A stretch of DNA of 64,000 nt. It comes from Candidatus Roseilinea sp. GTDB taxonomy: Bacteria > Chloroflexota > Anaerolineae > J036 > Brachytrichaceae. Under the pieces are notes generated by a model. That model saw only the letters and a program-made list of their open reading frames with translations, was not told the DNA's origin and did not search any database. Made by a program: the position numbers and the translations under genes. Positions 8,958-46,056 of the stretch are shown piece after piece. How positions within the stretch are numbered: the stretch's first letter is position 1; each line of letters starts with the position of its first letter. Where the stretch lies: positions 124,001-188,000 of the forward strand of contig BPHV01000004.1 of NCBI GenBank assembly GCA_026003755.1, read 5' to 3'.

Positions 8958-10985
8958 ATGAAAAGGCTGCATTTTGGCAAACTTATTGCTATAGTAATCA
9001 GCCTAGCCTTTACCGGCTTGACATGGGTTGTAACAGAGGCCGGGCAGCAGAATGTACCACCTGATCAGACCCTTCGACGCACCCCTACAGCAACACGTCG
9101 AGCCACCGTCACTCCAACCCCAAGACCCACTGCAACCCCCGCGCTTCCTTTCGCTGGGAAACTTCACCTGATTCCGGTGGTGGAGAGCGACCACCCCTAC
9201 GCTAACCTTGAGGACAAGCTCTGGCTCGTCTCCAACCCTGACGCCAACGCTGGGGCCACCCGGCTGCGTTTTGCTCGTTTTGAATTGGAAGAGGGGGTGG
9301 ACTGGCTCCTGGTGCTTGACGCCTACGATAACGAGATGCAGCGCCTCACTGGACGGCTACCAGACAACTTTTGGACTGAGCCAGTGCCCGGCACCATGGT
9401 CAAACTGCGGCTGGTGACCGATGGCTCAGTACGACGCTGGGGCTTCGCCGTGGACGCTCTGGCCTCAGTGCCCTACACTACTCTGGCCTATAGCCCTCAT
9501 CCTTATCCGCACAACAGCAGCCTAGAATGGCGCTTCAACAACCTGGACGCCAACGCAGCCGGGACACGGCTGCATTTCTCGCGCGTTGAGCTAGAGGAAA
9601 ACGTGGACTGGCTGGTGATCATGGACATCACCGAGAGGCCGTATCAATGGATCACCGGCAGCCATCCCGACGGCCTGTGGACCATCGGCGTGCCGGGCAA
9701 CGGGGTCATCGTGCGGCTGATCAGCGATGGCTCGGTGAGGAAGTGGGGGTTCAATCTGGATGCGCTGGAATCGGCCAAGCCTGACGAGGTGCAGCCGCGA
9801 CCAGAACCTGAGAAGGCTCTGGCTGAATCCAAACATCCATATGAGCCCAACAAGCAGTTGGAGTGGACCCTGGTAAATCCGAATCCGGCGGCGGCGTTCA
9901 GCAAAGTGCACTTCACGCGACTGGAGCTCCGAGGTGGCGACAGCTTGGTTCTCCTGGATGGCAATAACAACCGCATTCAGACTTTTGGTGAGGACACGGA
10001 CCTGTGGGACTTTTGGAGTGACGACGTACCAGGTCGAATCGTCAAGGTCCAGCTCAATGCGGGTGACTGGAGAGAAGGCTGGGGCTTCCGCATTGATCGG
10101 CTTGTAGACGGAGAGGCCCAAGCAGCCCTGGCTGAGAGCCCACATCCCTACTACCCCAATTGGACCAACACCTGGACCCTGGTGAACCCGAATCCAGCAG
10201 CGGCGTTCAGCAAAGTGCACTTCACGCGACTGGAGCTCCGAGGTGGCGACAGCTTGGTTCTCCTGGATGGCAATAACAATCGCGTTCAGACTTTTGGTGA
10301 GGACACGGACCTGTGGGACTTTTGGAGTGACGACGTACCAGGTCGAATCGTCAAGGTCCAGCTCAATGCGGGTGACTGGAGAGAAGGCTGGGGCTTCCGC
10401 ATTGATCGGCTTGTAGACGGAGAGGCCCAAGCAGCCCTGGCTGAGAGCCCACATCCCTACTACCCCAATTGGACCAACACCTGGACCCTGGTGAACCCGA
10501 ATCCAGCAGCGGCGTTCAGCAAAGTGCACTTCACACGACTGGAGCTCCGAGGTGGCGACAGCTTGGTTCTCCTGGATGGGAATAACAACCGCATTCAGAC
10601 TTTTGGTGAGGGCACGGACCTGTGGGACTTTTGGAGTGACGACGTACCAGGTCGAATCGTCAAGGTCCAGCTCAATGCGGGTGACTGGAGAGAAGGCTGG
10701 GGCTTCCGCATTGATGACATCGCACCAAAGGCCGAGGAGAAGCCCACTCCTGCGTTTGTAACCTCCGTCCGCGTCCGCCTCGGCCAGCCGGGGGATCTCT
10801 GGCTGAACAACGTCTATCTGGGTCGGGCCTCCGTCGCAGGTGAGTATCTTGTCCGCCTACCCCAACTGGGGGAGAACCTGATCGCCGTGGAGACCTTGTT
10901 CCACAGACAGGAGATCGTAGTGGGCACCGAGAAGGATGGCAGTGTGCGGATCGAGTACAGTGGCATCCAGCCGAAGGAGAAGTAA
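8958..10985 (+). CDS. Secreted CUB-like repeat protein with PEGA-like C-terminus
   Basis: The 675-residue product starts with a signal peptide (about residues 1-30), then a Thr/Pro/Arg-rich linker (PTATRRATVTPTPRPTATP). Five repeats of about 100 residues follow, each starting near HPY and ending GWGFRIDRL or RWGFAVDAL. The pattern (W..VNPNA, LHF.R.ELE, D.LVI.D, W....PG..VK..L) resembles the calcium-binding CUB-like modules of secreted proteins. The last three repeats are nearly identical. The C-terminus (about residues 595-665) looks like a PEGA domain (GDLWLNNVYLGRA). Function is unknown; adhesion or substrate binding is plausible. It is followed 64 bp later by another secreted protein gene, possibly in the same unit. 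Confidence 0.8.
   Translation: MKRLHFGKLIAIVISLAFTGLTWVVTEAGQQNVPPDQTLRRTPTATRRATVTPTPRPTATPALPFAGKLHLIPVVESDHPYANLEDKLWLVSNPDANAGATRLRFARFELEEGVDWLLVLDAYDNEMQRLTGRLPDNFWTEPVPGTMVKLRLVTDGSVRRWGFAVDALASVPYTTLAYSPHPYPHNSSLEWRFNNLDANAAGTRLHFSRVELEENVDWLVIMDITERPYQWITGSHPDGLWTIGVPGNGVIVRLISDGSVRKWGFNLDALESAKPDEVQPRPEPEKALAESKHPYEPNKQLEWTLVNPNPAAAFSKVHFTRLELRGGDSLVLLDGNNNRIQTFGEDTDLWDFWSDDVPGRIVKVQLNAGDWREGWGFRIDRLVDGEAQAALAESPHPYYPNWTNTWTLVNPNPAAAFSKVHFTRLELRGGDSLVLLDGNNNRVQTFGEDTDLWDFWSDDVPGRIVKVQLNAGDWREGWGFRIDRLVDGEAQAALAESPHPYYPNWTNTWTLVNPNPAAAFSKVHFTRLELRGGDSLVLLDGNNNRIQTFGEGTDLWDFWSDDVPGRIVKVQLNAGDWREGWGFRIDDIAPKAEEKPTPAFVTSVRVRLGQPGDLWLNNVYLGRASVAGEYLVRLPQLGENLIAVETLFHRQEIVVGTEKDGSVRIEYSGIQPKEK
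9821..10725 (+). repeat. Three 309-bp in-frame tandem repeats
   Basis: Units begin at 9821, 10130 and 10439, an exact 309-bp (103-codon) period. Units two and three are almost identical in DNA, and the first differs mainly in its first 60 bp. The third is cut short where the C-terminal domain begins (about 10725). Such identity at the DNA level points to recent duplication, so copy number may vary among strains or be collapsed in assembly. Confidence 0.9.
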
Positions 10986-28186: not shown

Positions 28187-28219
28187 TCGGCGCCGACCGT
28201 CATAAATCTGCGCTACACA
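28187..28219 (+). mobile_element. Solo right end of an ISKra4-derived element, copy D
   Basis: CATAAATCTGCGCTACAC and the bases before it (CGGCGCCGACCGT) align with the right end of the other copies (CGGCGGTGACTGTCACAAATCCGCGCTACAC) with about 5 mismatches. The interior to the left (28047-28186) is not recognisable as the element; it holds a minus-strand open stretch with several Cys whose family I do not recognise. Confidence 0.5.
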
Positions 28220-28490
28220 CCGAGGCGTTTTTCGCGGTTTTCGCTCGCGCCCGCTGCTCCTGCCCCTTCTCGCTCTGCGCGACCTTGTACTTGCTGGCGG
28301 GCAGCGTAGCGACGACAACTGCTCCAGGGACCTGCTGCACTGCCTCGGCGAGCTGCTGGATGGACGAGACGGTCTGATCCGCCAGGCTCGTGTCGCCGAC
28401 CGGCACCGTGGTTGCGCCGACGCAGTAGTCGGCCAGCTCGTCGAGCAGGATCAGGCATGGGGCGGCCACCCTCTGATCAAAGTTGCGGCT
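28220..28490 (-). pseudogene. Fragment of a second DUF499-type ATPase
   Basis: About 90 codons read VAAPCLILLDELADYCVGA, then SIQQLAEAVQQVPGAVVVAT and SKYKVAQSEKGQE. This is the Walker-B and following region of DUF499 AAA+ ATPases. It differs from the equivalent part of the full gene at 28489-31401 (PVLILLDEVLKYMERA), so it comes from a paralogue. The rest is missing, and the fragment is cut at the ISKra4-type end at 28219. Confidence 0.6.
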
Positions 28491-31401
28491 ACGACTGCCC
28501 GTCTAGCTCTCGCTCGATATTAGCCTCGTCCAGCGGCTCCTCGACCGCGTTGCGGAGCCACGCGGGGTCGAAGCCCTCCGAAGACTGTCCTTCGACGTGG
28601 ATCGTGACCTTCCGGTCGTCCGATTTGTCCGCCAAGTTGGCGATGGCGGGAAAGGCCCTGAAAATCTGGTCCCTTGTGGCCTTGAACTTCAATCGCACGG
28701 TGCCTTGGCGTGCTGCGCCTGCTGCACGGGGCGTTGGGGCAAGAACCGGCCCATCCTCCATAAGCCGAGGAGGCGCCCCAGAGGTGGGAACCGGAACCCC
28801 AGGTGGGACCGGAACGGTTCCCGGTACATGCGTGGCTGCTGCTTCGGGAAGGGCCGTAGGCACCATGAGGAAGCCAGACTCGAAATCCACATCGTCCTCG
28901 GCAAGCGTCCGTCTGATCACCACCTTGTCACGGGCCACCTGGAACTTCCCGTCGGGGCCGAGCGCAGGCTGTGATCCGCTCGTGTAGGCAAAGGTTCCTT
29001 CCGTCACCCCACGCGCAATACCTTTCCGAAGGACGTTCGACGATTCGAGGCGCGGCGGCGCGATGTCCCGGAAGAAGGCCTCCAGCACCTCTGAGGCTTT
29101 GATGCCCAAGAGTGGCGATTCGCCCGGGGCAAGTGGTTCTCCCAGCCGCACGCGCTCTACGATCTTGCGCGGGGTGACGCTGCCATGGACGCGCGGGGTT
29201 CCCACGCTCGTGAGCAGCTCCATGATCCGCTCGTGAATCCCGGTGGCTTGAAGGGGCCGACCGCCCCGTTCCACGCGCTCGATGCCGATCCCGCCGTTTT
29301 CGACCCGCGGCAGCCACCCTGCCGTGTAAAGGTCGCGGAAGCAGGATTCCGCCGTCGCTTCTTCGGTGCGCTTCCGCTCTTTGAGCTGGTCGAGCTGGTC
29401 CTTCGTCAGTCGCAGTTGCTGCTTCTTCGCCTCCACCCGCTCTATGGCCAGGAGATAACGAACGGCGCGGCGGAGCGGCTCGATTTGCCTCTTGTCGGGG
29501 ATCGCCAGCCCGAGACCATTGCGGAAGCGCCTCGGCCTGTCTCCGTACTTCGACAGATATTCCTTGGCCTGGCGCTCCTGCTCCGCCATGCTCTCCGCCG
29601 CAAATTCCAGCGGCAGGTAGGCCACGAGAAAACGCGGCTCGCCGTCCGGGATGTCTTGAGTCTTCTCCGGCCACACAATGGCGCCGGCGTGCCCCGCAAG
29701 GCGCGCGTCGAGCATCTCCTTGATCCTATCCCGAACCGGACCGCGTCCTTGGGCTTGCGCCTCTTGCCGCGCAACTTCCTGTTCCACGTCCTCGATGAGC
29801 TTGGTGACGTTGGGGTCCTTCTTGAAGCAGTAGCGAACGCCGTCGTAGTGCAGGTAGAGGCAGGTGTTGCGGAGTTCGGAGAGCACCGCGGTCGCCGTGA
29901 TGTTGTCGAGGTCGGGACCCACGCACGCCGCAAGAAGCTCGCTCTCGGTCACGCCCGGGGGAAGCGTTTCCGCGTCGCCCGAACCTTCACGCCGGAGGCC
30001 ACCGAACGAGTACAGCAGAATGGCGGTGGCCAGGCGGGTCGCTGGCTTGACGCTCGCGAGTTGAGGCGTCTCCCGGGCCAGCCGCTCGTCAATGCGCTTG
30101 GCCCGGGCGTTTGGCCCCTCGATGTCCGCCGTGATCACCGGGTCGTAGTCGTTCTGGACCCCGAGCTCCTTGAGCAGCTTGACCCGCACGTCCCCGTCCC
30201 GAGCGGCACGTCCCCAGGGCCCAGGAGCGGCCCCGCGCCGCCGTTTCGCTTGAGCGAGTGCATGCAAGAGGCGAGGAAGCGCAGCGCCCCCCGGGTTCGC
30301 TGGAAGGCGTCAACGGCGGTCCACCTTTCCCGCATGATGTCGATGAGCGCGGGGTGGAAGGGATAGGCGGCCCGCATCCGGTCGCGCAGCAAACGGCCTT
30401 CTTCTTCGGCCTGCTGGCGTTCGGCGGGCGTCTCCGCGTGGGCCCTCTGCATGCCGGTCACGACTTCCTGATACGCTGTCGCGACCTCCGTGGCGACGGT
30501 GTGGTCCGGGGGAGCGCCGAGCAGGCGACGCTGCAGAATGGGAAGCACCTCGTCTCCGCTGACCGGTTCGCGAAGCTGATCCACCCGCGCGGCGAGCTTG
30601 TCGATCTCGGCGAGCAGCGCGACGTTGCCCAAGCGCCTCCCGCGCGCTCCAGGTGAGCGAGTACACGAGCGCCGCGTTCGTGCTCCCGGCCACCTCGACG
30701 GTCAGGTTCTGGAAGAAGTCCTTGGCCTGCCGTTGAAGGGTCGAGTCGAGCACGGCCACCGCCGCCGCCCGCTCCATGTACTTCAGCACCTCGTCGAGCA
30801 GGATGAGGACCGGACGTCCGCCCGCCCCCTTGGTGAGAACATCGCGGATCACGTCCCCGCCCGGAGCGACGCGATCCTCGTCGTGCTGCGCAACGATGGG
30901 GAAGGCCCTCTCCGGGTCGATCTGCCAGGCGAGCCAGCCCCACATCGTCCGGATCGTCCGACCGCCGTCGAGTTCCTTGCCGTTGCGGGCGTCGAACTTT
31001 TCCCCGTCGAACACGGCTACCGCCACGTTCTGCGGGCGGGCGAAGCCGCTGCGCTTCGGGAATGCAATCGAGAGCTTCGCGACTCCGCGCTGCGTGCAGA
31101 AGCGCCGCCAGGGTGTGCGACTTCCCCCTCCGAACGGCGTGCGCAGCTTGAGCACCCGGTTGTAGCCCGACTTTCCGGCGAGCGACGCCAGCACCTCCTC
31201 GAGAAGCTTCTGGAGGTCGGCGGTCAGGTACGTCGCCCGGAAGAAGGCCTCCGGGTCGCGGTTCACGACGGGCACGTTGGGATCCCCGCCGCGATGGCGC
31301 CGAGGTCGATGGCGAAGACCGCCTCCGTGAGCGACGCCCGCTTCCACATCGGGGTGCAGCTTCACGAGGTCGGTCCAGGGGCGCAGGGCTCGGGTGGTCA
31401 T
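28489..31401 (-). CDS. DUF499 AAA+ ATPase of a defence operon, about six frameshifts
   Basis: Read across frames, the product has about 970 residues. The start is ATG 31401 (MTTRALRPWTDLVKLHPD), overlapping the DUF5615 stop. Frame changes are needed near 31345, 31285, 31130, 31090, 30630 and 30205. The Walker A segment (FGGGKSHTLAALLHA) spans the change at 31130, a G5 run. Walker B is PVLILLDEVLKYMERA at about 30780-30825. From 30200 to 28489 the frame is open for about 570 codons. DUF499 ATPases accompany DUF1156 methylases in defence loci, perhaps as the sensor or motor. As written the gene is broken, by decay or by homopolymer errors. Confidence 0.72.
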
Positions 31402-31784
31402 TCAGATTCTCCTTGTTCTCTGCCTTCGCGAGGCTCGTGAATGCGGATTCTTCCAGGCTCGACGATCCAAAGACCACTCTTCAGTGGCCTGGATCGGATC
31501 TCGGGCAACGCGCTGAGCAGTGTTGCCCGAATCAGGCTCAACAAGGGCCGAGGAACACGAACGATGACGATGCCCTCGGTGGACTCCGGCGGATAGCGAA
31601 GAGGATTCGAGAAGTCGAGGGCCAGGCTCACCAGCACTCGTTGGGAATCGCGACAGACCTGATAGATTGTCTGGTCTGTCGATCCCGACAGTCCCTCGTC
31701 GCGCACCGTGTCCACGTCGAACCCCTCGTTCTGCAGCACGGGCACGAGCCGCACGTCGAAGTTCTCGTCGAGCTTCAGCCTCAT
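31398..31784 (-). CDS. DUF5615-family PIN-like toxin
   Basis: This 128-residue protein begins MRLKLDENFDVRLVPVL and has LALDFSNPLRYPP in the middle, the signature DEN and LDFS elements of the DUF5615 PIN-like family. It should be the ribonuclease-like toxin partner of the DUF433 protein directly upstream. It starts in a 4-bp overlap with that gene and ends in one with the DUF499 gene. It looks intact. Confidence 0.83.
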   Translation of the reverse strand: MRLKLDENFDVRLVPVLQNEGFDVDTVRDEGLSGSTDQTIYQVCRDSQRVLVSLALDFSNPLRYPPESTEGIVIVRVPRPLLSLIRATLLSALPEIRSRPLKSGLWIVEPGRIRIHEPREGREQGESE

Positions 31785-32032
31785 GCCCCTTCCGCCTTGG
31801 CGGGGATCGGGATCACTCGCTCGCGCGTCATTTCCGCCGCATACGCCAAGGCCGCCCGGATGTCCTCGACCGTCAATTGCGGATAGGCTTCAAGAAGCTC
31901 TTGTTCGGAGACACCTTCTGCCAAATTGTCCACGATTAACGATACCCAAATCCGAGTGCCCTTGATGCAGGGGCGGCCGTGACACACGTTCGGATTAATC
32001 GAGATCCGATCTCTCCAGTCCCTTTCGCTCAT
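31781..32032 (-). CDS. DUF433-family antitoxin
   Basis: This 83-residue protein has the DUF433 helix-turn-helix pattern: RISINPNVCHGRPCIKGTRI and then EGVSEQELLEAYPQLTVEDI. DUF433 proteins pair with DUF5615 toxins, and here the toxin gene follows with an ATGA overlap. The start overlaps the corrected stop of the DUF1156 methylase gene. Its placement inside the operon suggests it may also regulate or guard the operon. Confidence 0.88.
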   Translation of the reverse strand: MSERDWRDRISINPNVCHGRPCIKGTRIWVSLIVDNLAEGVSEQELLEAYPQLTVEDIRAALAYAAEMTRERVIPIPAKAEGA

Positions 32033-34983
32033 GGTGCGTTCTCCCTTCCAAAAAGCGGCAGTTCTGCCAGCCGCTGGTCAATCAGCACCCGCCAGTTGGC
32101 GAGCAGTTTCTTGAGCGCGGCCTGCTTCGGCGGCAGTCGTCACGCTGCGCATCCATCCTGCCCTTCCGAGAGCGGTCCCGGCCAGCACCTGGGCCAGCAG
32201 GCGCAGGCGCTCGCGGTCGGGCCGGGCCTCGTCGAGGAACGTGTTGAGCGCACGCGGCTGGTTCTCCACGAGCCACAGGATGCGGTGCAGCGCGTCGATG
32301 AGGGGCGCCGGCGTTCCGTCCTCCGGCAGCCCCAGTTTCTCGTCTTCGCCCCGCTCGGTGAAGTCCCGCAGGCGGTACTTCCCCTTCTTCTTTGCGACGA
32401 GTGGGGCAGGCCGCCGGCCTGCCAATCCCTTAGGACCGTCCAACTCCACACCTCTGCCCGTAGGTGAAGACGATGGCCTCGCCCGCCTCCATCTCGGCGG
32501 CCTTGTAGGCGTAGCGCCAGAGCACATAGAACCGGCTCGGCCCGTCCACGGTGGAAACGCCGCTGCCCGCCATGCCGAAGATCTTCTCCAGGAGCGTCTC
32601 CAGCACAACCCCTTCCACCTCGGCGAGGAACTTCTCGGCGGGGACCTCCTCGCCGTTGGCGTACTCGACGCGGGCGAAGCGGGTGAAGGCGCGCAGGCCC
32701 GCGCCCACGGCCGCGATCGCCAGGTCCGCGCCCGCGATCCCCATCTTCCAGAGCGAATCCACCCGCTCGCGGACGATCTGCTCCAGCTCGGGCCGCACCT
32801 CGTCCTCGTAGGATCCGACTTCTGCCCCTTCGCGTTTGCGCGCGACCAAGAAGATGCTAGAGGCGAGGGCGGCGGAGTCCATGCCGCGCAGCCGCGATTT
32901 CATCTCGGTGTCGAGCGGCCACGCTTCGGTGACTGTGAACCCGGCCTGCCGCAGGGCATCCACGAGCGTGGCCCAGCCGAGCGTCGTCTTGTGCGCATAG
33001 ACGACCACCATGGAGCCACCCGGCTTCAGTACCCGGTTCGCTTCGGCGAACGACTTGCGCCATCATCTGCTCGTAGGCGGCGCGGGCCTTCTCCTTGCTG
33101 CCGCCGTGGCGGACGGGATCCGCGACGATCTCTTGCCTCTTGGGCGTGCCTTCCGTAGCGAAGTGCTCCGGGTAGAGGTGGCCGATCGTGCGCTTGAGCC
33201 AGACGTAGAAGAAGTCCGAGATGTCGGCGTAGGGAACGTTGTCGTAGTAGGGCGGGTCGGTGACGACGGCGTCGAAGGAGGCCTCGGGATATCGGAGCGC
33301 CGTGGCCGAGCCGCGGGTGACGGCGGCGGCGTGGCCACTGTCGGCCTGTGTCTCGGCTACGCCGACGATCCAGTCCAGAGCACCTTCAGGCGAACCAGAC
33401 GCGCCGCCAAACGGCGCAAGCTCGGCGAAGTCCCAGACCATTGGTAGGGCTTGGCGACCAAATGTTCCAGCGATCAGTTCACGGGTAACGTGCCAACGCG
33501 CCAAAGAGGAGTTGTAGTCCGCTTGCCGATTGACCAGCACGCCAAGATACATCAACACCGCCTTGGCCAGCTCGGCATCCACGCCCGCCTTCCGCATCTC
33601 CTCCTGCGCCTCCCGCACCGCCGCGGCGAAGGTGAGCAGGCAGAGCATCTGGCGGGGGGTGAAGAGGTCGCCCCAGGTTCGCAGGCCATAGGGCCGGACG
33701 GTGATGCCCAGGCTGTTATCACGGCAGTCCGAGGGGAGATTCGCGATCGGTTCGCTTGGCACCGAAAGCCCGGTTCGCTTACAAAGCGCCTTAATCCTTT
33801 GACCGATCTCTTCGTCGTCGGGACCGGTGTCGCGCAGATCGTCAGGCGACAGGTACACCTTGCCCTTTCCCCCGGGTCGCGTGCAGACGACGGCCATCAA
33901 CTGGCGGCCCAACCGGCCTTCCCAACCCTCGTCCTTTACGTAGTCAATATCGGCGACTGTCCCGCAGAAGGGGCAGGTCGCGTTGCCGCCTCTTGAGAAG
34001 CCCGCCGGGTCGAAGCCCAGGCCTTGCTCGGTGCGGCTCTCGACGACCTCAAAGCGTACCTGCTTCTCGCCCTTGGGCGCGATCATCTTCAGCGCCACAT
34101 AGCGGTTCTTCTTCTTGCACAGCCAGGTCTGCCGCACCAGCGGCACGGTCGCCCCGCACGAGGGATTCTTGCAGCGCACCGTCCGCGTCCAGAGGTAGGC
34201 GACGGGCACGAGGAAGCCGGGCGGTACTTCCTTCTTTGGCTCTTTCCACAAGGCTGTCTGCGTTTCCGGCCTCCGCCCTTTGTACCCCGGATCAGGAATG
34301 AGCGGATAGAGGTCGCCGATCTCGGCCTTGACCTTTTCCAGCACCCAGTTCCCCCAGTAGCGGACCTCTGCGGCCAGCCCCCCCCAGGTCGGTTCACCCT
34401 CGGCGTTCTTGGGGCCGGTCATGCCGCGCGCGTTTGGGTCGGACTTGCCGTACTTCTGCGGATAGACCAGCGTGCAAAGCTCGATAATGTGCGCGACGGG
34501 GTTCAGATCGAGCGCGTAGGCCTCGCAGCCGAGGCGCAGCGCCTCCAGCGGAATCGCCCCACCGCCGGCGAACATGTCGAGTACCTTGGGCCGGGGCGCG
34601 CGGCCCTCGAGGATGTCCTCGACCGTGACCGGCTTGCCGGTCTCCTGGGTGAGCCGCTCCGCGTGGGCATCGAGGATATGCTTCTGTGCGTCGGCGATGG
34701 CCTGGGGTGAGCCCGGATACTGGCACAGCCGCTCGACGAACTTGGCCGCATTGGCCCAGCCCAGGCTCTGCTTCTTGTTGTCCGGCCCGTTCGCGGGAAC
34801 GAAGCGCGAGGCCGGCACCAGCGCCCCGTACACCGCTGCCCGGCACGCCACGAGCGGCCGCCTGGCCCACCAGAGATGCAGCGTCGAAATGTGCCCCTTG
34901 CGCACGGATTTTTCCCGCGAGGCCTCCTTGCTGATGGCCTCGATGGGCAGGTAGTCCTCGATGAGCTGGCGATCGTTGGTCAT
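32029..34983 (-). CDS. DUF1156 Zn-ribbon adenine-specific DNA methylase, about three frameshifts
   Basis: Reconstructed length is about 984 residues. The DUF1156 N-terminus is visible (IEDYLPIEAISKEASREK, LHLWWARRP), then the AdoMet loop VLDMFAGGGAIPLEALRLG, a zinc-ribbon region (CKNPSCGATVP and CPFCGTV) and the catalytic motif DPPYYDN. The shifts are near 33058, 32462 and 32130. The corrected C-terminus reads LLANWRVLIDQRLAELPLFG and stops at 32029-32031, overlapping the DUF433 start. The start is ATG 34983, overlapping the preceding stop. Such enzymes are predicted to methylate adenine in phage-defence modules. The three shifts leave it inactive if real; the AdoMet and catalytic motifs are both upstream of them. 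Confidence 0.83.
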
Positions 34984-35585
34984 GGGGTGGCTGGAAACCA
35001 TACCTGCAAAGTCTCCCTAAAACGCAGAAAAGCAGAATCCTGGCAGCGTTCCACACTCACAGTCTGCGCGAGGGTGCGATAGATGGCGGACGATCGCGGC
35101 TTTCGGACTTCGTAGAGCGCCGACTCGACCGCGGCCTTTGGATGCTTGGGTTTCGGATCGGTGGCTGCCCACAGTCCTTTCTGCTGGAGCCACTCCTTGA
35201 GCGCCGGATCACGCCCGGCCCAACCGAGCGCTTCGTCCACATGCGGCGAATCGCTCCAGACCCAGGCTTCCAGTTCGGGAACAATGACGATGGCCTGAGC
35301 CCAGCCAGCAAGGCCCGCGTTGTCAAGAGCTTGATCGATCTCGCTTTGTACATCCTGTGGCGCGCCTTCCCACGCCGCATCGAGCACGAGAAGGCCGTGG
35401 CGGTACTTGTTGTGAAGGGAACGCAGAAAGTCGATACCCTCCCCAAACACGCCAGGATCGCGCCGAGGATGAACCTTAATCTCGGCATCCAGCGGGCGGA
35501 TACCCAGGGCCGCATTCCGCGTGAGAAGCCCCTGCACGGCCGCCTCCATGTTCTTGTCTGCGACGAGACAGATAAGATCCTTCAT
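34980..35585 (-). CDS. Small TOPRIM/DUF4276-like protein
   Basis: The 201-residue product starts MKDLICLVADKNMEAAVQGL and has HGLLVLDAAWEGAP, then VIVPELEAWVWSDSPHV. An acidic residue near the start, a D-x-x-x-E strand and a later Glu-rich strand fit a TOPRIM-like or DUF4276 nuclease pattern, though I cannot assign the family with certainty. Proteins of this kind are usually encoded beside an AAA ATPase of the OLD type, as here. Both ends are ATGA overlaps. The gene is intact. Confidence 0.6.
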   Translation of the reverse strand: MKDLICLVADKNMEAAVQGLLTRNAALGIRPLDAEIKVHPRRDPGVFGEGIDFLRSLHNKYRHGLLVLDAAWEGAPQDVQSEIDQALDNAGLAGWAQAIVIVPELEAWVWSDSPHVDEALGWAGRDPALKEWLQQKGLWAATDPKPKHPKAAVESALYEVRKPRSSAIYRTLAQTVSVERCQDSAFLRFRETLQVWFPATP

Positions 35586-36895
35586 CCCAGAATCCCGCTT
35601 GCGAAGAGCGTTCCTAGGTCCCGCGTTCCTCGCCATTCCTTGAGCTCGGGGTGTTGGTCACCCGAAACGACATCGGTCGCCCCATTTTGGTCGCGTGCAA
35701 AGCAGAGAATCTCGCTCGGCTTTGCCATGCTGAGGATCACCGGAGAGTGCGTGGCCAACAGCACTTGGGCTCCATAGACTGAGGAGAGAGACTGATAGAC
35801 CGTTTCTACCGCTCGCGGATGGATGCCGTTCTCCGGTTCCTCAATGAGACAGATTCCCAAAAGATCCGGTATGTACGCCAGCAGCGTCAGTGCGAGCAGG
35901 CGCAGCGTCCCATCGGAAACAAGCCAGGAGGGAATCGTGAGTCCATTCTTGTAGTGCAACACGAGATAACGATGTCGGTCTTCTTCCCGCTCCCGAGTCT
36001 CAATGCGTTCGATGTCGGGCAGAGCCTCGCGGACGTGGGCGACCCAGTCCTGCAAACGCGCCGGGTGCTCTTTCTCAAGGGCATGGACGACCCACGGCAA
36101 GTTCGAGCCGTCGGGGAGATAGCCTCTGGCACGACTGGGCGGGCTGGGCAGGCGCATGGCCTCGCTCGACAGAGTCAGCCGCTGGATACCCTCAGCCAGG
36201 ACCTTGCGAAACCACGTTGCCACGGGAAAGCGTTCTTCGTCCTCCGGCAGATTTGCAAGTGCTGCCTTGTCAGCCGGGACGCGGAACGGGTTATTCCAGC
36301 CCGAGGTCTCCGACCAAAAGGTGACTCTCTCCGGCTCGTCGCCTCGACCGACGACTTTTTTCCAGCCGGGTAGGCGTTTCCGAGGGGCTTGCACGATGCT
36401 CTCAGGAGGCTCCGGTGGTTCGGGAAATAGCGTTCTTTGCACCGAACCCGAAGTCCGATTTTCGGGAACTTCAGGCCGCAACCACAGGTTCTCCGTCGCC
36501 ACACGGGGCGCGCCTGAAACGTCCACAGCGATTTCATAGCGACAGAGATTGGTATTGCCGTTTTTGAGGTGGCTCTGAAGATGAGAAGGAATGGCGGCTT
36601 CGACTGCCAGCTCAAATCGCTTGCCCTGTCGCATCCAAGTGAGCTGTTTTGCGTCCGAGGCTCGATGCGGAATGCTGAGCTTTGGCTCGCCTTCCACCGC
36701 AGCCATCAGACTTGAGCGAAGCAGATCCCCCAGGAAGGCAGGAACATCGAGAAACGTGGATTTACCGCTCGCATTCGGCCCAACGAGAACCTGAAAGCGC
36801 TGTAAACAGAAGGAAACGTAGCGCAAAGACCGATAACCAAGCGCCTCGATGCGTACGATGGATCCAGGGGCGGATCGGATAGGCTCGCCGTTCAT
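35582..36895 (-). CDS. AAA ATPase of the RecF/OLD-like (AAA_15/AAA_21) type
   Basis: The 437-residue product has Walker A GPNASGKST at residues 39-47, a LSSEAMRL region, and near the C-terminus Walker B ICLIEEPENGIHPRA with an ATHSP switch motif. This fits ABC-type ATPases that sense DNA ends or partner with a nuclease. The start is ATG 36895, overlapping the helicase stop. No nuclease domain is fused; the gene that follows probably supplies it. Intact. Confidence 0.85.
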   Translation of the reverse strand: MNGEPIRSAPGSIVRIEALGYRSLRYVSFCLQRFQVLVGPNASGKSTFLDVPAFLGDLLRSSLMAAVEGEPKLSIPHRASDAKQLTWMRQGKRFELAVEAAIPSHLQSHLKNGNTNLCRYEIAVDVSGAPRVATENLWLRPEVPENRTSGSVQRTLFPEPPEPPESIVQAPRKRLPGWKKVVGRGDEPERVTFWSETSGWNNPFRVPADKAALANLPEDEERFPVATWFRKVLAEGIQRLTLSSEAMRLPSPPSRARGYLPDGSNLPWVVHALEKEHPARLQDWVAHVREALPDIERIETREREEDRHRYLVLHYKNGLTIPSWLVSDGTLRLLALTLLAYIPDLLGICLIEEPENGIHPRAVETVYQSLSSVYGAQVLLATHSPVILSMAKPSEILCFARDQNGATDVVSGDQHPELKEWRGTRDLGTLFASGILG

Positions 36896-39800
36896 GAACG
36901 AACTTCCTTTTCGCTTCGCGCTACGCTTTGGACCGCCTCCGCCGGGATCTCGAAAAACCGCGTCGCGACGATCTCGCGCTTGGCATGGTCCAATCGTACC
37001 GCGGGATTCTGGATGCGCACGAGCTCCGGGTTCGGGCCGAGCGGATCCCACACGACGTAGAGCCAATAGGTCTCGGCAAGTTGCTGTGCTTTATACCACT
37101 CGTTGGTCGTGAGGCGCACGGGCTGGCCGCGCATCCGTCCCTTGACCTCGACGCGCTTCACGAGCACCTCGCCGGTCGCTTCGTCCAAGATTCGGTGGGC
37201 GCGGATGTCGAAGCCGAGCTTCAGGTGCCCCACGCGCTCGATGCGATCCTCGGGGAAGCCTTCCTCCTTGAGCGCGGCAACCACCATGTCCTCGGCGGCC
37301 AGCTCGCTCTGCCTTCGGACGTTGGGGTCGAGTTCATCCGCGAGGTCCGCAAGCTGGCTTTCCGTGTCCGCGCTGGTAGGCAAGACGATGGCCGTGGCCA
37401 GGTGGCGCACGGGGCCGGTGTGGGCGACTTCCAACCGATCGAGCCCGCCGAGTCGCTCCTCGCGCTGGCGTTGCAGTTCCTCCACGTACTTGCGCGCTTC
37501 GTCCGCCGACAGCTTGTACTCGGGCTTCGCCGTCGCCTCCGCCGCGAGCAGCATGGCCCGCTCCTGGGCTCGCTTGATCCGGGCATCGAAGGAGCGCTGC
37601 AGATACTCCCGGCAGATGCGGGCGAAGCGCTGGCGCTCTTGCTGGCAGCGTGCGCGACATTGCTGTAGGTAATCTTTCTTGAGGAAGTCGGAGGCCGCGT
37701 GGGTGTCGACGGGATCAACTGCGGACGGTGGGTTGGCCAGAGGTGGCAAGTTGAGCAGGATGTCGCTTGGGACGATTTCGAACTGCCCCCGTTGCTCTCG
37801 GACGGCTACCAGCTCGCCGTGGAGCGACACGTTGTTTCCCCTGGAGTCCTTGCCGCGAATGGTGATCTCGAAGAAGTGGAGCCGGTACGGCTCGGTCGTG
37901 AGCGGGTCTACGTAGAACCCAACACCTCCTTGAAGGGACGCCAGCTTCTCGTTGAGTTTTTCGTCAACCGCCGCATACAAGGGATGCCCCGGCCCCATCA
38001 GCACGGCATCCAGATGGTCGGGCTGCTCGAGGTGGTGCTTGTGGAACGTGACCTTGCGGTAGGAAGGATCGGCCTTGCCGAGGCGGTGGACCGACCGAAG
38101 CCGGTCGGAACGCAGGTCGGCTAATACGTGCTCGATACGCCAGAGGCCGTCGGCCCTCGGCTCGACGCGCAGGCCGATTTCCTTGGCCGCGGCGATGAAC
38201 TGCGCCTCTACGTAGCGGGGCATCAGCCGCTTCTCCTCGACCTCGAGGTTACGGCGCTGGAATCCGCTGAAGTCCACGTGGCTCCGGGCGAGAGCGATGC
38301 CCGTGGCCTCTTCGTACTCCTTCAATTTGGCCGGATCGATGCGGTCGATCTGGTCGAGGTATTCATCCAGCCGGCGGGGATCGTAGGCCGCCTCCCTGAG
38401 CATGTCCGGGAGGTTCACGTCGTTCAGCGACAGGACCTCGCCGATGACGTCGAAGACCCGTCCTTCCAGGGCCTCGTTCATCCTGTCGAGCTTCTCGAGG
38501 AGGCGATGCAGGATACGCCCCTCGACGATGGGCTGACCGTCCTCGGAATCCGTGGCCACGAAGTTGAAGGCGTAAACGTCGCGATCTTGGCCGATCCGAT
38601 GAATGCGCCCCAAGCGTTGCTCCAGGCGCGTGGGATTCCACGGCATGTCGTAGTTGATCATCAGGTGGCAGAACTGAAGGTTGATGCCTTCGCCGGCGGC
38701 TTCGGTCGCCACGCAGATTTGGGCGGCAGTGCGGAACTGCTCCTGCGCTCGCTTGCGTTCGTGGGGATTCATGCCGCCATGGATCTCGCAGGTGCTGTAG
38801 CCCCAGCGCTCGAGGTGCGCGCGCACGTAGGCGAGCGTGTCGCGGTGCTCGGTGAAGACGAGGAGCTTGCCCCGGCCATCCTTGAGCTCGGCAAACTGCG
38901 CCTCGCCCAGGCACTTCTTGAGGGCGGCCAACTTGGAATCGTTCGCCTGCTCGCGCACCCGGCGGGCCTGCTCGACGAGTTCCTTGAGAGCGGCGATTTC
39001 GGCCCTAAGCTGCTCCAGTTCCAGCGCCGCCGTGTACTCATTGACGAGCCGGTCGCGGACCTCGTCATCGAGGTCGTCTTCATCCTGCTCCGCGTCGGGC
39101 AGGCGTCCTTGAAGAGCTGCAAGGCGCTTGGCCCGCTGGGCCGGGGAAAGGCCCTCCAGCTCATCCAGCAGGTCCTGCTGCTTCTTGAGCCGCCGTTTCA
39201 GGGATTCGTGAATGGCGCAGGTCGAACTGACCAGACGCCGCTGGAGGACCGTGCGCGTGAGCGCGGCCGATGACCCCCGCTTGCCGCTCTGCTGGGGGAT
39301 GAACTCGTTGATGTAGGCCGTGACGGACTTGTAGAGGGCGTACTCCTCGCTATTGAGGCAGAAGGTCACGGTCTTGGCAAGCCGGTCGGAAAACAGCCGC
39401 TTGCCGTTCAAATCGCGCAAGTCCTCCTTGAGCCGGCGCAGACACCAGGGGGAACTCCTGCCGAGCTTCAGCACCTCTCTGCGGATTGCGCTTGCCTCTT
39501 GCGCCAAGCGATGGGGCTCCGGGAAAAGGTCGGGATCCACGAGGCGGAGAAAGTGCGCAAACCGGTCCTCGTTTCCATGGTGGGGGGTTGCGGTCAGGAG
39601 CAACACATGGTCGGCCGATTCGGAAAGGCGCTTGGCCAATTGGTACCGCTTGGTCTCGGCCACTTCGTCGCTGCGTCCCGAGGAAGACTTGGTATAGGCC
39701 GAGCACTTGTGGGCTTCGTCAATGACAACGAGGTCCCACCTCTGCTGCCACACCCGCTCGCGCACGTCGTCCTGCTTCGCGTAGTCGATGGAGGCGATGA

Positions 39801-40419
39801 CCTGCGACGAGCGCTGCCATGGGTTCGTGAGCTGCTGCTGGTCCACGGCGGAGAAGATGATGTCAAACGACTCGCCGAACCACCGGAGCATCTCGTCTTG
39901 CCATTGAATCGTGAGGGGCGCAGGGCAGAGGATGAGCACGCGCTCGATAGCCTGCCGCAGTTTCAACTCCTTGATCAGGAGACCGGCCATGATGGTCTTC
40001 CCGGCCCCCGGGTCGTCGGCGAGCAAGAAGCGCAGGCGCGGCTGCGGCAGCATGGCCTGGTAAACGGCCTCGATCTGGTGCGGCAGCGTACGGATGCCCG
40101 AGAGGCTTACCGCGAACTGCCGGTCGTGCGCGTAGGCCAAGCGTATGCGGGCCGATTCGACCAAGAGACGCAGCCGTTCTGCGTCCACGGGCTCGATCGC
40201 CGTCGGCGCTTCCAGGTCCGTGCCACAGAGTGACGCCGCTTCTGCAGGCGAGATGACTGTCTCCTCGAGCGTGCCGTCGGGCAGCCGGACGCGGCACTCG
40301 TAGCCCGCCGAGCCGTCGGCGCCGAGGGCCCGAACATCCTCCAGGATCACGGGCACGTCGAAGTGCCCCGGCAGGGAGATCTGCCGTCCGATCTGCGTTG
40401 AAAGGCGATTCTCAGCCAT
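36892..40419 (-). CDS. SNF2-family helicase with C-terminal DUF3883-like domain
   Basis: The 1175-residue protein has the SF2 motifs: DDPGAGKTIMAGLLIKEL as motif I, LVVIDEAHKCS as motif II, LLLTATPHHG as motif III and QRLGRIHRIGQ as motif VI. The end has KRVEVKGRMRGQPVRLTTNE and AETYWLYVVWDP, the pattern of DUF3883, a predicted nuclease-like or methylation-sensing domain. It is the first gene of the operon. The frame opens at 40464, but ATG 40419 (MAENRLSTQI) is the best start. A GGAGG lies 18 bases upstream, which is far for a ribosome site, so start use is unclear. Intact. Confidence 0.9.
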   Translation of the reverse strand: MAENRLSTQIGRQISLPGHFDVPVILEDVRALGADGSAGYECRVRLPDGTLEETVISPAEAASLCGTDLEAPTAIEPVDAERLRLLVESARIRLAYAHDRQFAVSLSGIRTLPHQIEAVYQAMLPQPRLRFLLADDPGAGKTIMAGLLIKELKLRQAIERVLILCPAPLTIQWQDEMLRWFGESFDIIFSAVDQQQLTNPWQRSSQVIASIDYAKQDDVRERVWQQRWDLVVIDEAHKCSAYTKSSSGRSDEVAETKRYQLAKRLSESADHVLLLTATPHHGNEDRFAHFLRLVDPDLFPEPHRLAQEASAIRREVLKLGRSSPWCLRRLKEDLRDLNGKRLFSDRLAKTVTFCLNSEEYALYKSVTAYINEFIPQQSGKRGSSAALTRTVLQRRLVSSTCAIHESLKRRLKKQQDLLDELEGLSPAQRAKRLAALQGRLPDAEQDEDDLDDEVRDRLVNEYTAALELEQLRAEIAALKELVEQARRVREQANDSKLAALKKCLGEAQFAELKDGRGKLLVFTEHRDTLAYVRAHLERWGYSTCEIHGGMNPHERKRAQEQFRTAAQICVATEAAGEGINLQFCHLMINYDMPWNPTRLEQRLGRIHRIGQDRDVYAFNFVATDSEDGQPIVEGRILHRLLEKLDRMNEALEGRVFDVIGEVLSLNDVNLPDMLREAAYDPRRLDEYLDQIDRIDPAKLKEYEEATGIALARSHVDFSGFQRRNLEVEEKRLMPRYVEAQFIAAAKEIGLRVEPRADGLWRIEHVLADLRSDRLRSVHRLGKADPSYRKVTFHKHHLEQPDHLDAVLMGPGHPLYAAVDEKLNEKLASLQGGVGFYVDPLTTEPYRLHFFEITIRGKDSRGNNVSLHGELVAVREQRGQFEIVPSDILLNLPPLANPPSAVDPVDTHAASDFLKKDYLQQCRARCQQERQRFARICREYLQRSFDARIKRAQERAMLLAAEATAKPEYKLSADEARKYVEELQRQREERLGGLDRLEVAHTGPVRHLATAIVLPTSADTESQLADLADELDPNVRRQSELAAEDMVVAALKEEGFPEDRIERVGHLKLGFDIRAHRILDEATGEVLVKRVEVKGRMRGQPVRLTTNEWYKAQQLAETYWLYVVWDPLGPNPELVRIQNPAVRLDHAKREIVATRFFEIPAEAVQSVARSEKEVRS

Positions 40420-40454
40420 GCTTTTATTTATACAGAACCTCCAATTTAGAAATA

Positions 40455-40570
40455 TAGTTTGCACTAATTATATTACTGTTAATATTTTCTATCAACATAC
40501 GATTTCAGGCGCTTAGCTTGCAGTGACTATATCATTGTTAAGTTTGCCTGTCAAGATCCGATTTTAGGCC
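40455..40570. repeat. Two imperfect 59-bp AT-rich tandem repeats upstream of the defence operon
   Basis: Unit 1 (40455-40513) and unit 2 (40514-40570) align without gaps: both begin TAGYTTGCA, have a TATAT/TGTTAA stretch in the middle, then TCAA and GATTTYAGGC. About 70 percent of positions agree. They lie just before the helicase start in the only clearly AT-rich gap of the window. A doubled operator or promoter is possible. Confidence 0.7.
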
Positions 40571-41049
40571 GACAGAAACGTGGGCGACCTTTTCTGCAGC
40601 GGGAGCAACATAGGGGACATGAAACCATCCACCGTATCCAGCCATGTGCAGCAGCGCGAACAGTTCCCGGCCCTGGCCGCCCAGGCCTATACGGCGAAGG
40701 CCTGGGCGGAGAGACAACCGGACGCGCTGTAGGCCGGCGGAGCGCAGGCCGTTGCGGAAGCGGTGCGAGGGCTGCCTCAGGCTGAGGCGGCGGCGCCGGC
40801 GAGCGACTTTGCCGAGAATGCGGGGCGCATGCGTGATGCAGCGTTCCGCGCGCAAGGGCTGCCGATTGGCAGCGGCGTGGTGGAGCGCGGCTGCAGGACG
40901 GTGATACGGCGACGTTTGTGTCGGGGCTGGGAACGACGGTGGCATGCGGCGGCCATGCTCGCCGCCTGGTGTGAACTGCACAGCAATCGGCTAGACGCCG
41001 CAATCCGTCAGTGCCACCGGCGGTGACTGTCACAAATCCGCGCTACACC
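40570..41049 (+). mobile_element. ISKra4-derived element, copy B
   Basis: This is the longest copy (about 480 bp). Its right end is TGTCACAAATCCGCGCTACACC; the left end has lost the outer GGTGTAGCG and starts at GACAGAAACGTGGGCGACC. It contains a broken transposase frame, 40619-41026, with an internal TAG at 40729-40731. The surviving C-terminal part reads LPIGSGVVERGCRTVIRRRL, an ISKra4-type motif. It directly follows the two 59-bp repeats and closes the island on its right side. Confidence 0.72.
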
Positions 41050-41054
41050 CTGGC

Positions 41055-41330
41055 CTGCTCTCTCACCAAAATCCCGGCCAGTGGCGAGAAGATCCGCATC
41101 GAAAGTTGCTGAACTTCCTCAAGACCGAGATGCCCGAGGAATTCAAAAAGATCCGCTTCGGCGCGATCGCCACGCCCAACCTGAACGGCAACCACCTCAG
41201 CGACGCGCCGGCCGCCTAGGTAGGCTGCATCGGCATCGCGCCCGGCGGCAACATCAACTACGTCACCGGCCATGCCATCTTCGAGGCGCCCCACGGCACC
41301 GCACCCAAATACGCCAATCGCAGTCATGCT
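41055..41330 (+). pseudogene. Isocitrate dehydrogenase remnant with internal deletion
   Basis: The start reads [14 protein letters not shown], the typical N-terminal stretch of NADP isocitrate dehydrogenases. It then jumps to a C-terminal stretch: [31 protein letters not shown], then a TAG where Gln would fit, then [17 protein letters not shown] and [11 protein letters not shown]. The roughly 900 bp between them are missing. The gene is cut beside IS copy B. No intact isocitrate dehydrogenase gene is in the window. Confidence 0.7.
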
Positions 41331-45543: not shown

Positions 45544-45599
45544 CGCTCTGGTAAGTCACGATTCAGACGGTGATCATTTCATTGAATATTTCATGTAGG

Positions 45600-45626
45600 A
45601 TTTTAACACAGAAGGCGACTTGTCAA
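45600..45626 (-). promoter_or_regulatory. Candidate sigma70-like promoter of the LacI gene
   Basis: On the minus strand TTGACA (45621-45626) and TAAAAT (45600-45605) are 15 bp apart, which is short of the usual 17. A direct repeat ATTTCAT-TGAAT-ATTTCAT lies between it and the start. A perfect LacI-type palindrome was not found. Confidence 0.45.
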
Positions 45627-45643
45627 CCGACGATGGGCCATGG

Positions 45644-46056
45644 GGTGTAGCGCAGATTTGTGGGCGACCTTTCCCGGCCCTGGTCACCCAGGCCTATACG
45701 GCGAAGGCCTGGGCGGAGAGACAACCGGACGCGCTGTGGGCCGGTGGAGCGCGGGCCGTTGCGGAAGCGGTGCGAGGGCTGCCTCAGGCTGAGGCGGCAG
45801 CGCCGGCGAGCGACTTTGCCGAGAATGCGGGGCGCATGCGTGATGCAGCGTTCCGCGCGCAAGGGCTGCCGATTGGCAGCGGCGTGGTGGAGCGCGGCTG
45901 CAAGACGGTGATACGGCTGCGTTTGTGTCGGGGCTGGGAACGACGGCGGCATGCTGCGGCCATGCTCGCCGCCTGGTGTGAACTGCACAGCAATCGGCTA
46001 GACGCCGCAATCCGTCAGTGCCGCCGGCGGTGACTGTCACAAATCCGCGCTACACC
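45644..46056 (+). mobile_element. ISKra4-derived element, copy C
   Basis: This 413-bp copy has both ends: GGTGTAGCGCAGATTTGTG (left) and CACAAATCCGCGCTACACC (right), inverted with one mismatch. It carries 130 intact codons of a transposase C-terminus (LPIGSGVVERGCKTVIRLRL), but lacks the catalytic start and the leader sequence present in copy B. It is thus a non-autonomous deletion derivative. It lies between the LacI promoter and the S9 peptidase gene. Confidence 0.75.

What the first reader, a model, noticed from the sequence alone, without database searches (positions are those of the whole stretch)
40455..40570. Two 59-bp imperfect tandem repeats directly upstream of the operon
The units align end to end without gaps, are far more AT-rich than their surroundings, and lie just before the first gene. 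They may be a doubled operator, a phase-variable promoter or a recombination site. They match no TA or CRISPR repeat I know.
Basis: seen in the sequence. Interest (0 to 1): 0.55.

Follow-up and report, generated by a model that had tools for sequence, protein, structure and literature searches.

The report
Doubled promoter beside an insertion sequence
Two worn copies of a 59-letter stretch each carry a near-perfect bacterial "start reading here" signal just ahead of an acquired phage-defence operon, so the repeat is most simply a duplicated promoter; more unusually, the jumping gene next to it seems to land again and again just upstream of such signals.

Summary
The repeat is real: units 40455-40513 and 40514-40572, 42 of 59 letters identical ungapped, far above chance. 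On the minus strand each unit holds, in the same register, a near-consensus sigma-70 promoter facing an Hma / DUF499 BREX-related operon (hmaA ATG at 40419). TTGAYA-17-TATART occurs four times in the 3.34-Mb genome; two are these. Best reading: a tandemly duplicated promoter, local to this copy: none of 68 examined homologous operons has it, and 17 of 64 have a small HTH_17 gene there instead. It is not part of the adjacent ISKra4-like IS, nor of the empty site in genus relatives. No support for inversion, attC or an RNA element. Following the IS gave the most surprising result: in this genome 10 of 14 left ends of this IS have TTGAC 12-21 nt outside the tip, reading away from the IS, 8 of them with a good -10; 0 of 13 right ends do. 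One of two left ends met in other species shows the same. So the IS apparently lands, in one orientation, at the upstream edge of promoters, and P1 is one such site. Unmeasured: transcription starts, any regulator, transposition. hmaB and hmaC are frame-broken here.

The parts
40514..40572 (-). distal repeat unit, with promoter P1
   Evidence: 42/59 identical to the other unit; TRF
40455..40513 (-). proximal repeat unit, with promoter P2
   Evidence: as above; GC 0.29
40526..40554 (-). P1: TTGACA, 17 nt, TATAGT, with TG before the -10 (11 of 12)
   Evidence: its -35 begins 18 nt from the IS sequence, as at other copies of the IS
40467..40495 (-). P2: TTGATA, 17 nt, TATAAT (11 of 12)
40438..40442 (-). 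GGAGG, Shine-Dalgarno-like but 18 nt from the ATG (longer than usual)
   Evidence: read directly from the sequence
36892..40419 (-). hmaA-like SNF2 helicase with C-terminal NOV_C domain, first gene of the operon (open frame reaches 40464)
   Evidence: PADLOC HmaA 4.2e-188, Pfam; start from homologues
35582..37066 (-). AAA_21 ATPase (HEC-01A / mad3-like), accessory
34980..35636 (-). 218-aa protein, mad4 / HEC-01B-like, accessory
32078..35001 (-). hmaB-like DUF1156 methyltransferase, in three frames here
31781..32032 (-). DUF433 protein
   Evidence: PF04255 1.4e-27
31398..31784 (-). DUF5615 protein, next to DUF433
   Evidence: PF18480 2.3e-20
28223..31401 (-). hmaC-like DUF499 ATPase, in pieces
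   Evidence: HmaC 5e-30 and 1.2e-28; left limit set by the IS tip, inferred
40573..41048 (+). short ISKra4-like IS copy abutting the repeat; left tip of about 10 nt missing
28204..28218 (+). IS right-tip remnant at the other end of the operon
45598..45659 (-). second IS left end in the window with a promoter (TTGACA-15-TAAAAT, -35 at 45626) 16 nt outside, before a LacI-type gene

Best explanation
The repeat is a tandem duplication of a sigma-70-type promoter module. Each 59-bp unit carries a -35 and -10 box in the same register pointing into the Hma-type (DUF499 BREX-related) operon. RNA polymerase would start at about 40519 (P1) and 40460 (P2), giving leaders of about 100 and 41 nt before the hmaA ATG at 40419. 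With starts 59 nt apart both promoters can be occupied at once, so the pair would raise or steady operon expression. The neighbouring IS probably landed at the upstream edge of P1, as it did at other promoters in this genome. Shown: the repeat, the in-register promoter match, its rarity in the genome, its orientation, its absence from other IS copies, from the empty sites read and from the homologous operons examined, and the association of IS left ends with promoters. Inferred: that the promoters are used, their starts and strength, that the module arose by local duplication, and that the IS chooses promoters as targets.
For: Two sites of 11/12 with 17-nt spacing, same offset in both units, both facing the operon. 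They are the only 17-spaced sites of at least 11/12 on either strand of the 64-kb window; of 5000 dinucleotide shuffles of 40421-40572 8 had one or more such sites and none had two. Genome-wide, TTGAYA-N17-TATART has 4 sites, 2 of them here; the reversed-pattern control has 0. Upstream regions of homologous operons are enriched for such promoters on the sense strand: a 17-spaced site of at least 10/12 in 10 of 68 against 1 of 68 antisense; L009, L014, L015 and L057 share the distal unit's TTGACAGG. The -35 of P1 begins 18 nt from the IS; at 9 other left ends of this IS a TTGAC begins 12-21 nt outside, independent support that P1 is a promoter. hmaA is under purifying selection (identity at codon positions 1/2/3 of 0.91/0.94/0.62 to L057).
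Against: No transcript data. Identity between the units is spread evenly (12/15 upstream, 5/6 -35, 11/17 spacer, 5/6 -10, 9/12 downstream), so the boxes are not conserved above the rest. The only SD-like GGAGG is 18 nt from the ATG. hmaB and hmaC are frame-broken, so the operon may be decaying (or the assembly may hold indels). Use of the sigma-70 consensus in this unnamed host is assumed. 58 of 68 relatives show no 17-spaced site of at least 10/12 within 450 nt.
Confidence: 0.82

Rival explanations
1. A doubled operator: each unit is a repressor or activator site overlapping a promoter, so the repeat is a regulatory switch, as in RptR-controlled defence islands.
For: Identity runs through the spacer and flanks, not only the boxes. 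Defence islands can be repressed through direct repeats overlapping the -10 (RptR, PMC12255303, passages read). Part of the relatives encode an HTH_17 protein at this place.
Against: No inverted repeat above shuffles in the region. The HTH gene is missing here and the best match in the genome is weak (33% identity, E 2.2e-4). The leader word GGTTTGGTTGGCA shared by several HTH-bearing relatives is absent here (best 8 of 13). None of the 68 relatives examined has the repeat.
Confidence: 0.15
2. Relic: a promoter-bearing AT-rich fragment duplicated by chance, without a present role because the operon is decaying. (Concerns present function; not exclusive with the promoter reading.)
For: hmaB and hmaC are split across frames; the fragment abuts an IS with a lost tip; the neighbouring icd is a remnant.
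Against: Both promoters keep 11/12 matches although the units are 29% diverged; hmaA, the AAA gene, the 218-aa gene and the DUF433/DUF5615 genes are open frames. Frame breaks could be assembly indels.
Confidence: 0.25
3. Recombination or inversion site (phase-variable promoter, attC-like 59-bp element, transposase-binding subterminal repeat).
For: Period of 59, position beside an IS.
Against: One 7-nt inverted pair against a mean of 1.4 in shuffles; one GTTRRRY core and no RYYYAAC on the plus strand; the other IS left ends read do not carry the repeat.
Confidence: 0.03
4. On the IS-promoter association: not target choice but survival. Insertions between genes, upstream of a promoter, are the harmless ones, and the orientation in which transposase transcription runs away from the promoter is favoured.
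For: Survival bias towards intergenic sites is general knowledge. The transposase reading runs left to right, away from the promoter (frames). The two copies with clear target duplications (9 and 7 nt) have no TTGAC near.
Against: All ten TTGAC boxes fall in a 10-nt band (12-21 nt); outward boxes at 50-400 nt in the same flanks are 6 in 4844 positions. 0 of 13 right ends have one within 50 nt.
Confidence: 0.35

Closest known systems
Tandem sigma-70 promoters of bacterial operons (E. coli set analysed in PMC8830795)
   Same: Two co-directional promoters close together; start distance above 35 bp, where both can be occupied (abstract and passages read).
   Different: Here the two promoters are visibly duplicate copies (71% identical) and nothing is measured.
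RptR direct-repeat promoter of a defence island (PMC12255303)
   Same: Direct repeats in the promoter of a phage-defence operon.
   Different: There three 9-bp repeats with a TAGCTA core overlap one promoter and a repressor is encoded beside them; here two 59-bp units each hold a whole promoter and no regulator gene lies beside them (passages read).
Promoter region of homologous Hma / DUF499 BREX-related operons (for example L020, L055, L009, L014)
   Same: Promoter of the TTGAC-17-TAT type reading into the operon; TTGACAGG shared with the distal unit in some.
   Different: Single promoter about 350 nt upstream, followed by an HTH_17 gene; no repeat.
ISKra4-family insertion sequences; IS near promoters in general (PMC9208149, passages read)
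   Same: Transposase pieces match NF033572 transpos_ISKra4 (1.5e-15 and 3.5e-4, below the whole-protein cut-off because fragments). IS are known to sit often in promoter regions.
   Different: Here the association is one-ended and in a narrow band from the -35 box; I did not find that described in the listings and passages seen.

Membership tests
Tandem (duplicated) sigma-70 promoter | two -35/-10 pairs at 16-18 nt, same direction | tested here: met
   17-nt spacers, both minus strand
Tandem (duplicated) sigma-70 promoter | the promoters are copies of one another | tested here: met
   42/59 ungapped, same register
Tandem (duplicated) sigma-70 promoter | two transcription starts in vivo | not testable with these tools
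   no RNA data
Hma / DUF499 BREX-related operon | SNF2 helicase, DUF1156-type MTase and DUF499 ATPase together | tested here: met
   HmaA 4.2e-188, HmaB 9.3e-121, HmaC 5e-30; MTase and ATPase frames broken here
Hma / DUF499 BREX-related operon | C-terminal nuclease domain on the helicase (Type 1 of PMC12839542) | tested here: inconclusive
   NOV_C 2.4e-13 at 1057-1149; its equation with the REase domain is my inference
Part of the IS element | repeat present next to the same IS end in other copies | tested here: not met
   the 11 other matches do not extend past 40573; outside sequences of the other left ends are different
ISKra4 family (the neighbouring IS) | ISKra4-type transposase | tested here: inconclusive
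   fragments match NF033572 at 1.5e-15 and 3.5e-4, scores below the curated cut-off of 205 bits
Invertible / phase-variable promoter | inverted repeats flanking the promoter | tested here: not met
   one 7-nt pair, shuffles mean 1.4
Integron attC (59-be) | paired RYYYAAC ... GTTRRRY cores | tested here: not met
   one GTTRRRY, no RYYYAAC on the plus strand; motif definition recalled
RptR-type repeated operator | short repeats with a TAGCTA core and an adjacent repressor gene | tested here: not met
   no TAGCTA in the units (sequence); no HTH match in the window's upstream kilobase

The most novel reading that the evidence does not exclude
The ISKra4-like element beside the repeat chooses promoters: it inserts in one orientation at the upstream edge of sigma-70 promoters, its left end 12-21 nt from the -35 box (about -48 to -57 from the start), as if guided by promoter-bound RNA polymerase or by the -35 region. 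The doubled promoter of this defence operon is one such landing site.
Probability: 0.45. Interest if true: 0.65.

Novelty: new member of a known kind. Interest (0 to 1): 0.35.

Why it matters
The repeat itself is explained as an ordinary doubled promoter of one copy of a widespread defence operon, useful as a natural case of changed upstream control after transfer. The IS result would matter more if it holds: one-ended, promoter-edge insertion would be a simple target rule that keeps genes intact while placing the element in control regions, and it is directly testable with a transposition assay.

Tried and rejected
Repeat copies elsewhere: at E up to 10 only the locus itself and two weak pieces (28 and 14 nt) in the own genome; 24 of 149 genomes (own one included) gave matches at E <= 1, those outside the own locus short, best E 0.05; phages 6 records (best E 0.04) and plasmids 1 record (E 0.5), none covering 80% of the query; 0 exact pattern matches in viral contigs.

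RNA element: one Rfam match at E <= 1 (RsmV, 10.3 bits against a gathering score of 100, opposite strand); the leader from P1 folds no better than shuffles (z -0.36). Rejected.

IS-borne repeat: rejected. HTH gene moved elsewhere in the genome: not supported. The viral relatives L147 and L148 show no 17-spaced promoter of at least 9/12 in the stretch scanned; L148 has an HTH-like frame upstream by eye. L043 has another imperfect upstream repeat (39 of 63), not followed.

IS relatives to widen the promoter test: none of the IS left end in plasmids or viral contigs; one distant transposase in plasmids (29.5%), not followed. In 118 loci from other genomes two left-type tips were met: L139 (G002) has TTGACA 16 nt outside, L134 (G007) has no TTGAC in the 44 nt held. 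Against the rule in the own genome: L154, L157, L160 and L163 have no TTGAC within 50 nt; L157 and L160 share their flank, so they count as one; L158 and L166 have TTGAC but no good -10. L164 was dropped from the 15 left matches because it does not reach the tip. The window copy lacks the tip, so its 18 nt are counted from the first IS base left.

Rows dropped: of 73 loci, five (L044, L048, L052, L053, L066) begin at or near a contig edge and were left out, so 68 were used; 64 of these have at least 300 nt upstream. Start codons in relatives were chosen by script and some are doubtful (for example L026), which shifts distances. HTH hits were counted at E <= 0.01 within 1 kb (weakest 0.003; L046's lies about 200-375 nt away).

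The codon comparison used a start one base off and is void; one search replaces it.

Full report
Observation. The two units 40455-40513 and 40514-40572 align end to end without gaps with 42 of 59 identical positions; TRF finds them with score 132. Composition-matched shuffles never exceed 30 of 59 in 20,000 trials, and there is no third copy between 39000 and 42000. The region is AT-rich.

What the units contain. Read on the minus strand, towards the operon, each unit has a near-consensus sigma-70 promoter at the same offset: TTGACA-17-TATAGT (40554-40526, with TG before the -10) and TTGATA-17-TATAAT (40495-40467). These are the only 17-spaced sites of at least 11/12 on either strand of the window; of 5000 dinucleotide shuffles of the region 8 had one or more such sites and none had two. 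In the 3.34-Mb genome TTGAYA-N17-TATART occurs four times, two of them here; the reversed-pattern control gives none. Identity is spread evenly over the unit, as expected of an old duplication that has drifted.

What it drives. The first gene, 36892-40419, is HmaA-like (Pfam SNF2, Helicase_C, NOV_C). Behind it lie an AAA_21 ATPase and a mad4/HEC-01B-like protein, a DUF1156 HmaB-like methyltransferase, DUF433 and DUF5615 genes, and a DUF499 HmaC-like ATPase. This is the system named Hma in PMC8565338 (passages) and DUF499-centred BREX-related in PMC12839542 (one section and passages). HmaB and HmaC are each split over several frames here; decay and assembly error cannot be told apart. hmaA shows strong purifying selection: identity at codon positions 1/2/3 is 0.91/0.94/0.62 to L057 and 0.87/0.93/0.52 to L009.

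Where it sits. IS sequence begins at 40573, directly after the distal unit. Eleven other places in the genome match that IS end and none extends past 40573; a tip of about 10 nt present in other copies is missing here. So the repeat is not part of the IS. Transposase pieces of other copies match the ISKra4 model below its full-protein cut-off. The IS right tip is at 41034-41048, and another right-tip remnant lies at 28204-28218, at the far end of the operon. Stretches of five genus relatives were read. None matches the operon. In G003 and G006 argJ and an icd gene are 43-44 nt apart at this place; in G002 and G007 they are about 1.5 and 2.3 kb apart; in G004 icd was not found in the stretch. 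In the window icd is a remnant at 41048-41317. The operon and the repeat are therefore inside an insertion bracketed by IS ends. The closest HmaA relatives (88% and down) come from many phyla, while the best near-full-length match outside the own genome among 149 genomes of the relatives search is 42%, which indicates horizontal acquisition.

Comparison with homologous operons. Of 73 loci 68 had usable upstream sequence. Seventeen of the 64 with at least 300 nt upstream have an HTH_17-type match within 1 kb, in most directly before hmaA (the L057 protein: PF12728 1.8e-13, PADLOC mad1 2.3e-8); among them are L057, L009 and L010 of the four closest (L076 has none). The window has no such gene there and no close one in the genome. 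Ten of 68 have a 17-spaced sense promoter of at least 10/12 within 450 nt against 1 of 68 antisense; none has two. No relative has a repeat as strong (best L043, 39 of 63). The distal unit shares TTGACAGG with L009, L014, L015 and L057, which allows, but does not show, that it descends from the operon's own promoter. The leader word GGTTTGGTTGGCA of several relatives is absent.

The IS and promoters. Reading the outside of other IS copies showed a pattern. Fifteen matches of the left end were found in the genome; 14 reach the tip, or its truncated form in the window. In 10 of these 14 a TTGAC box starts 12-21 nt outside, reading away from the IS; no other outward TTGAC lies within 50 nt. Two of the four exceptions share one flank, so the independent count is 10 of 13. 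Eight of the 10 have a -10 of at least 5/6 at 15-17 nt. In the window only 2 of 88 TTGAC boxes have such a -10, and both are the IS-adjacent ones, 40554 and 45626. None of 13 right ends has an outward TTGAC within 50 nt. With the window's or the outer flanks' TTGAC frequency the chance of 10 of 14 is about 1e-19 or 1e-17 (the band was chosen after seeing the data, so these are too small, but a wider band would not change the verdict). Genes downstream differ. In G002 a left end of the same IS has TTGACA 16 nt outside; in G007 a left-type tip has none in the 44 nt held. Upstream of LacI-type homologues of the window's 44482-45543 gene in relatives, a TTGACA box with a -10-like box is seen by eye in five of seven stretches (L132, L134, L135, L137, L140), none with the IS in the stretch shown, so that promoter type predates the IS there. 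I read this as target choice at the upstream edge of promoters; survival bias is the rival. The two copies with clear target duplications (9 and 7 nt) are both without a promoter, a point against.

Mechanism of the repeat. I conclude that it is a duplicated promoter module. Predicted starts are about 40519 and 40460. In the E. coli model of PMC8830795 (abstract and passages) starts more than 35 bp apart avoid occlusion, so two such promoters would raise total output until it saturates. P1 also lies at the distance from the IS at which other copies meet promoters, which is independent support. Loss of an HTH regulator and gain of two promoters is a possible history, not a result.

Rivals. A doubled operator remains open (RptR is the nearest precedent). 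A relic without present function remains open because of the broken frames. Inversion, attC and RNA-element readings found no support. In print: searches for Hma gene names (3 papers listed), DISARM regulators (none), duplicated promoters (6 listed), ISKra4 with target site (6 listed) and IS target choice with promoters (none; none) showed no description of either element in the listings; I read passages or sections of five papers only, and the library holds open-licence papers only.

Noticed in passing
left ends of the IS: G000 C4:67339, C5:305976, C1:338160, C3:141329, C1:862757, C4:164573 (window 40573), C1:239579, C5:21939, C3:37741, C4:169643 (window 45643): TTGAC box 12-21 nt outside the left tip, reading away from the IS, in 10 of 14 left ends; 0 of 13 right ends.
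   Followed up: yes
L157 and L160 (G000 C1:100085 and C3:34148): Two IS copies with target duplications of 9 and 7 nt sit next to the same long repeated flank beginning GGGTGCATTTCAG.
   Followed up: partly
41048-41317: Remnant of a native isocitrate dehydrogenase gene (intact in G003) beside the island; the best other matches in the genome are about 48% identical or less.
   Followed up: partly
28204-28218 and 40573-41048: IS ends of the same kind bracket the defence operon in the same orientation, like a composite element.
   Followed up: partly
32078-35001 and 28223-31401: hmaB and hmaC homologues are split over several frames while hmaA is intact.
   Followed up: partly
31398-32032: DUF433/DUF5615 genes between hmaB and hmaC; matched in only one (L009) of 17 relative loci searched, several of which end before that place.
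   Followed up: partly
L020, L023, L055, L014, L050 about 320 nt upstream of hmaA, L026 about 264 by the start used: Shared leader word GGTTTGGTTGGCA (12-13 of 13) after the promoter, a candidate operator for the HTH_17 protein.
   Followed up: no
L043 about 180 nt upstream of hmaA: Another imperfect tandem repeat, period 63, 39 of 63 identical.
   Followed up: no
9864-10715: Strong 309-bp tandem repeat, 2.8 copies, 97% matches.
   Followed up: no
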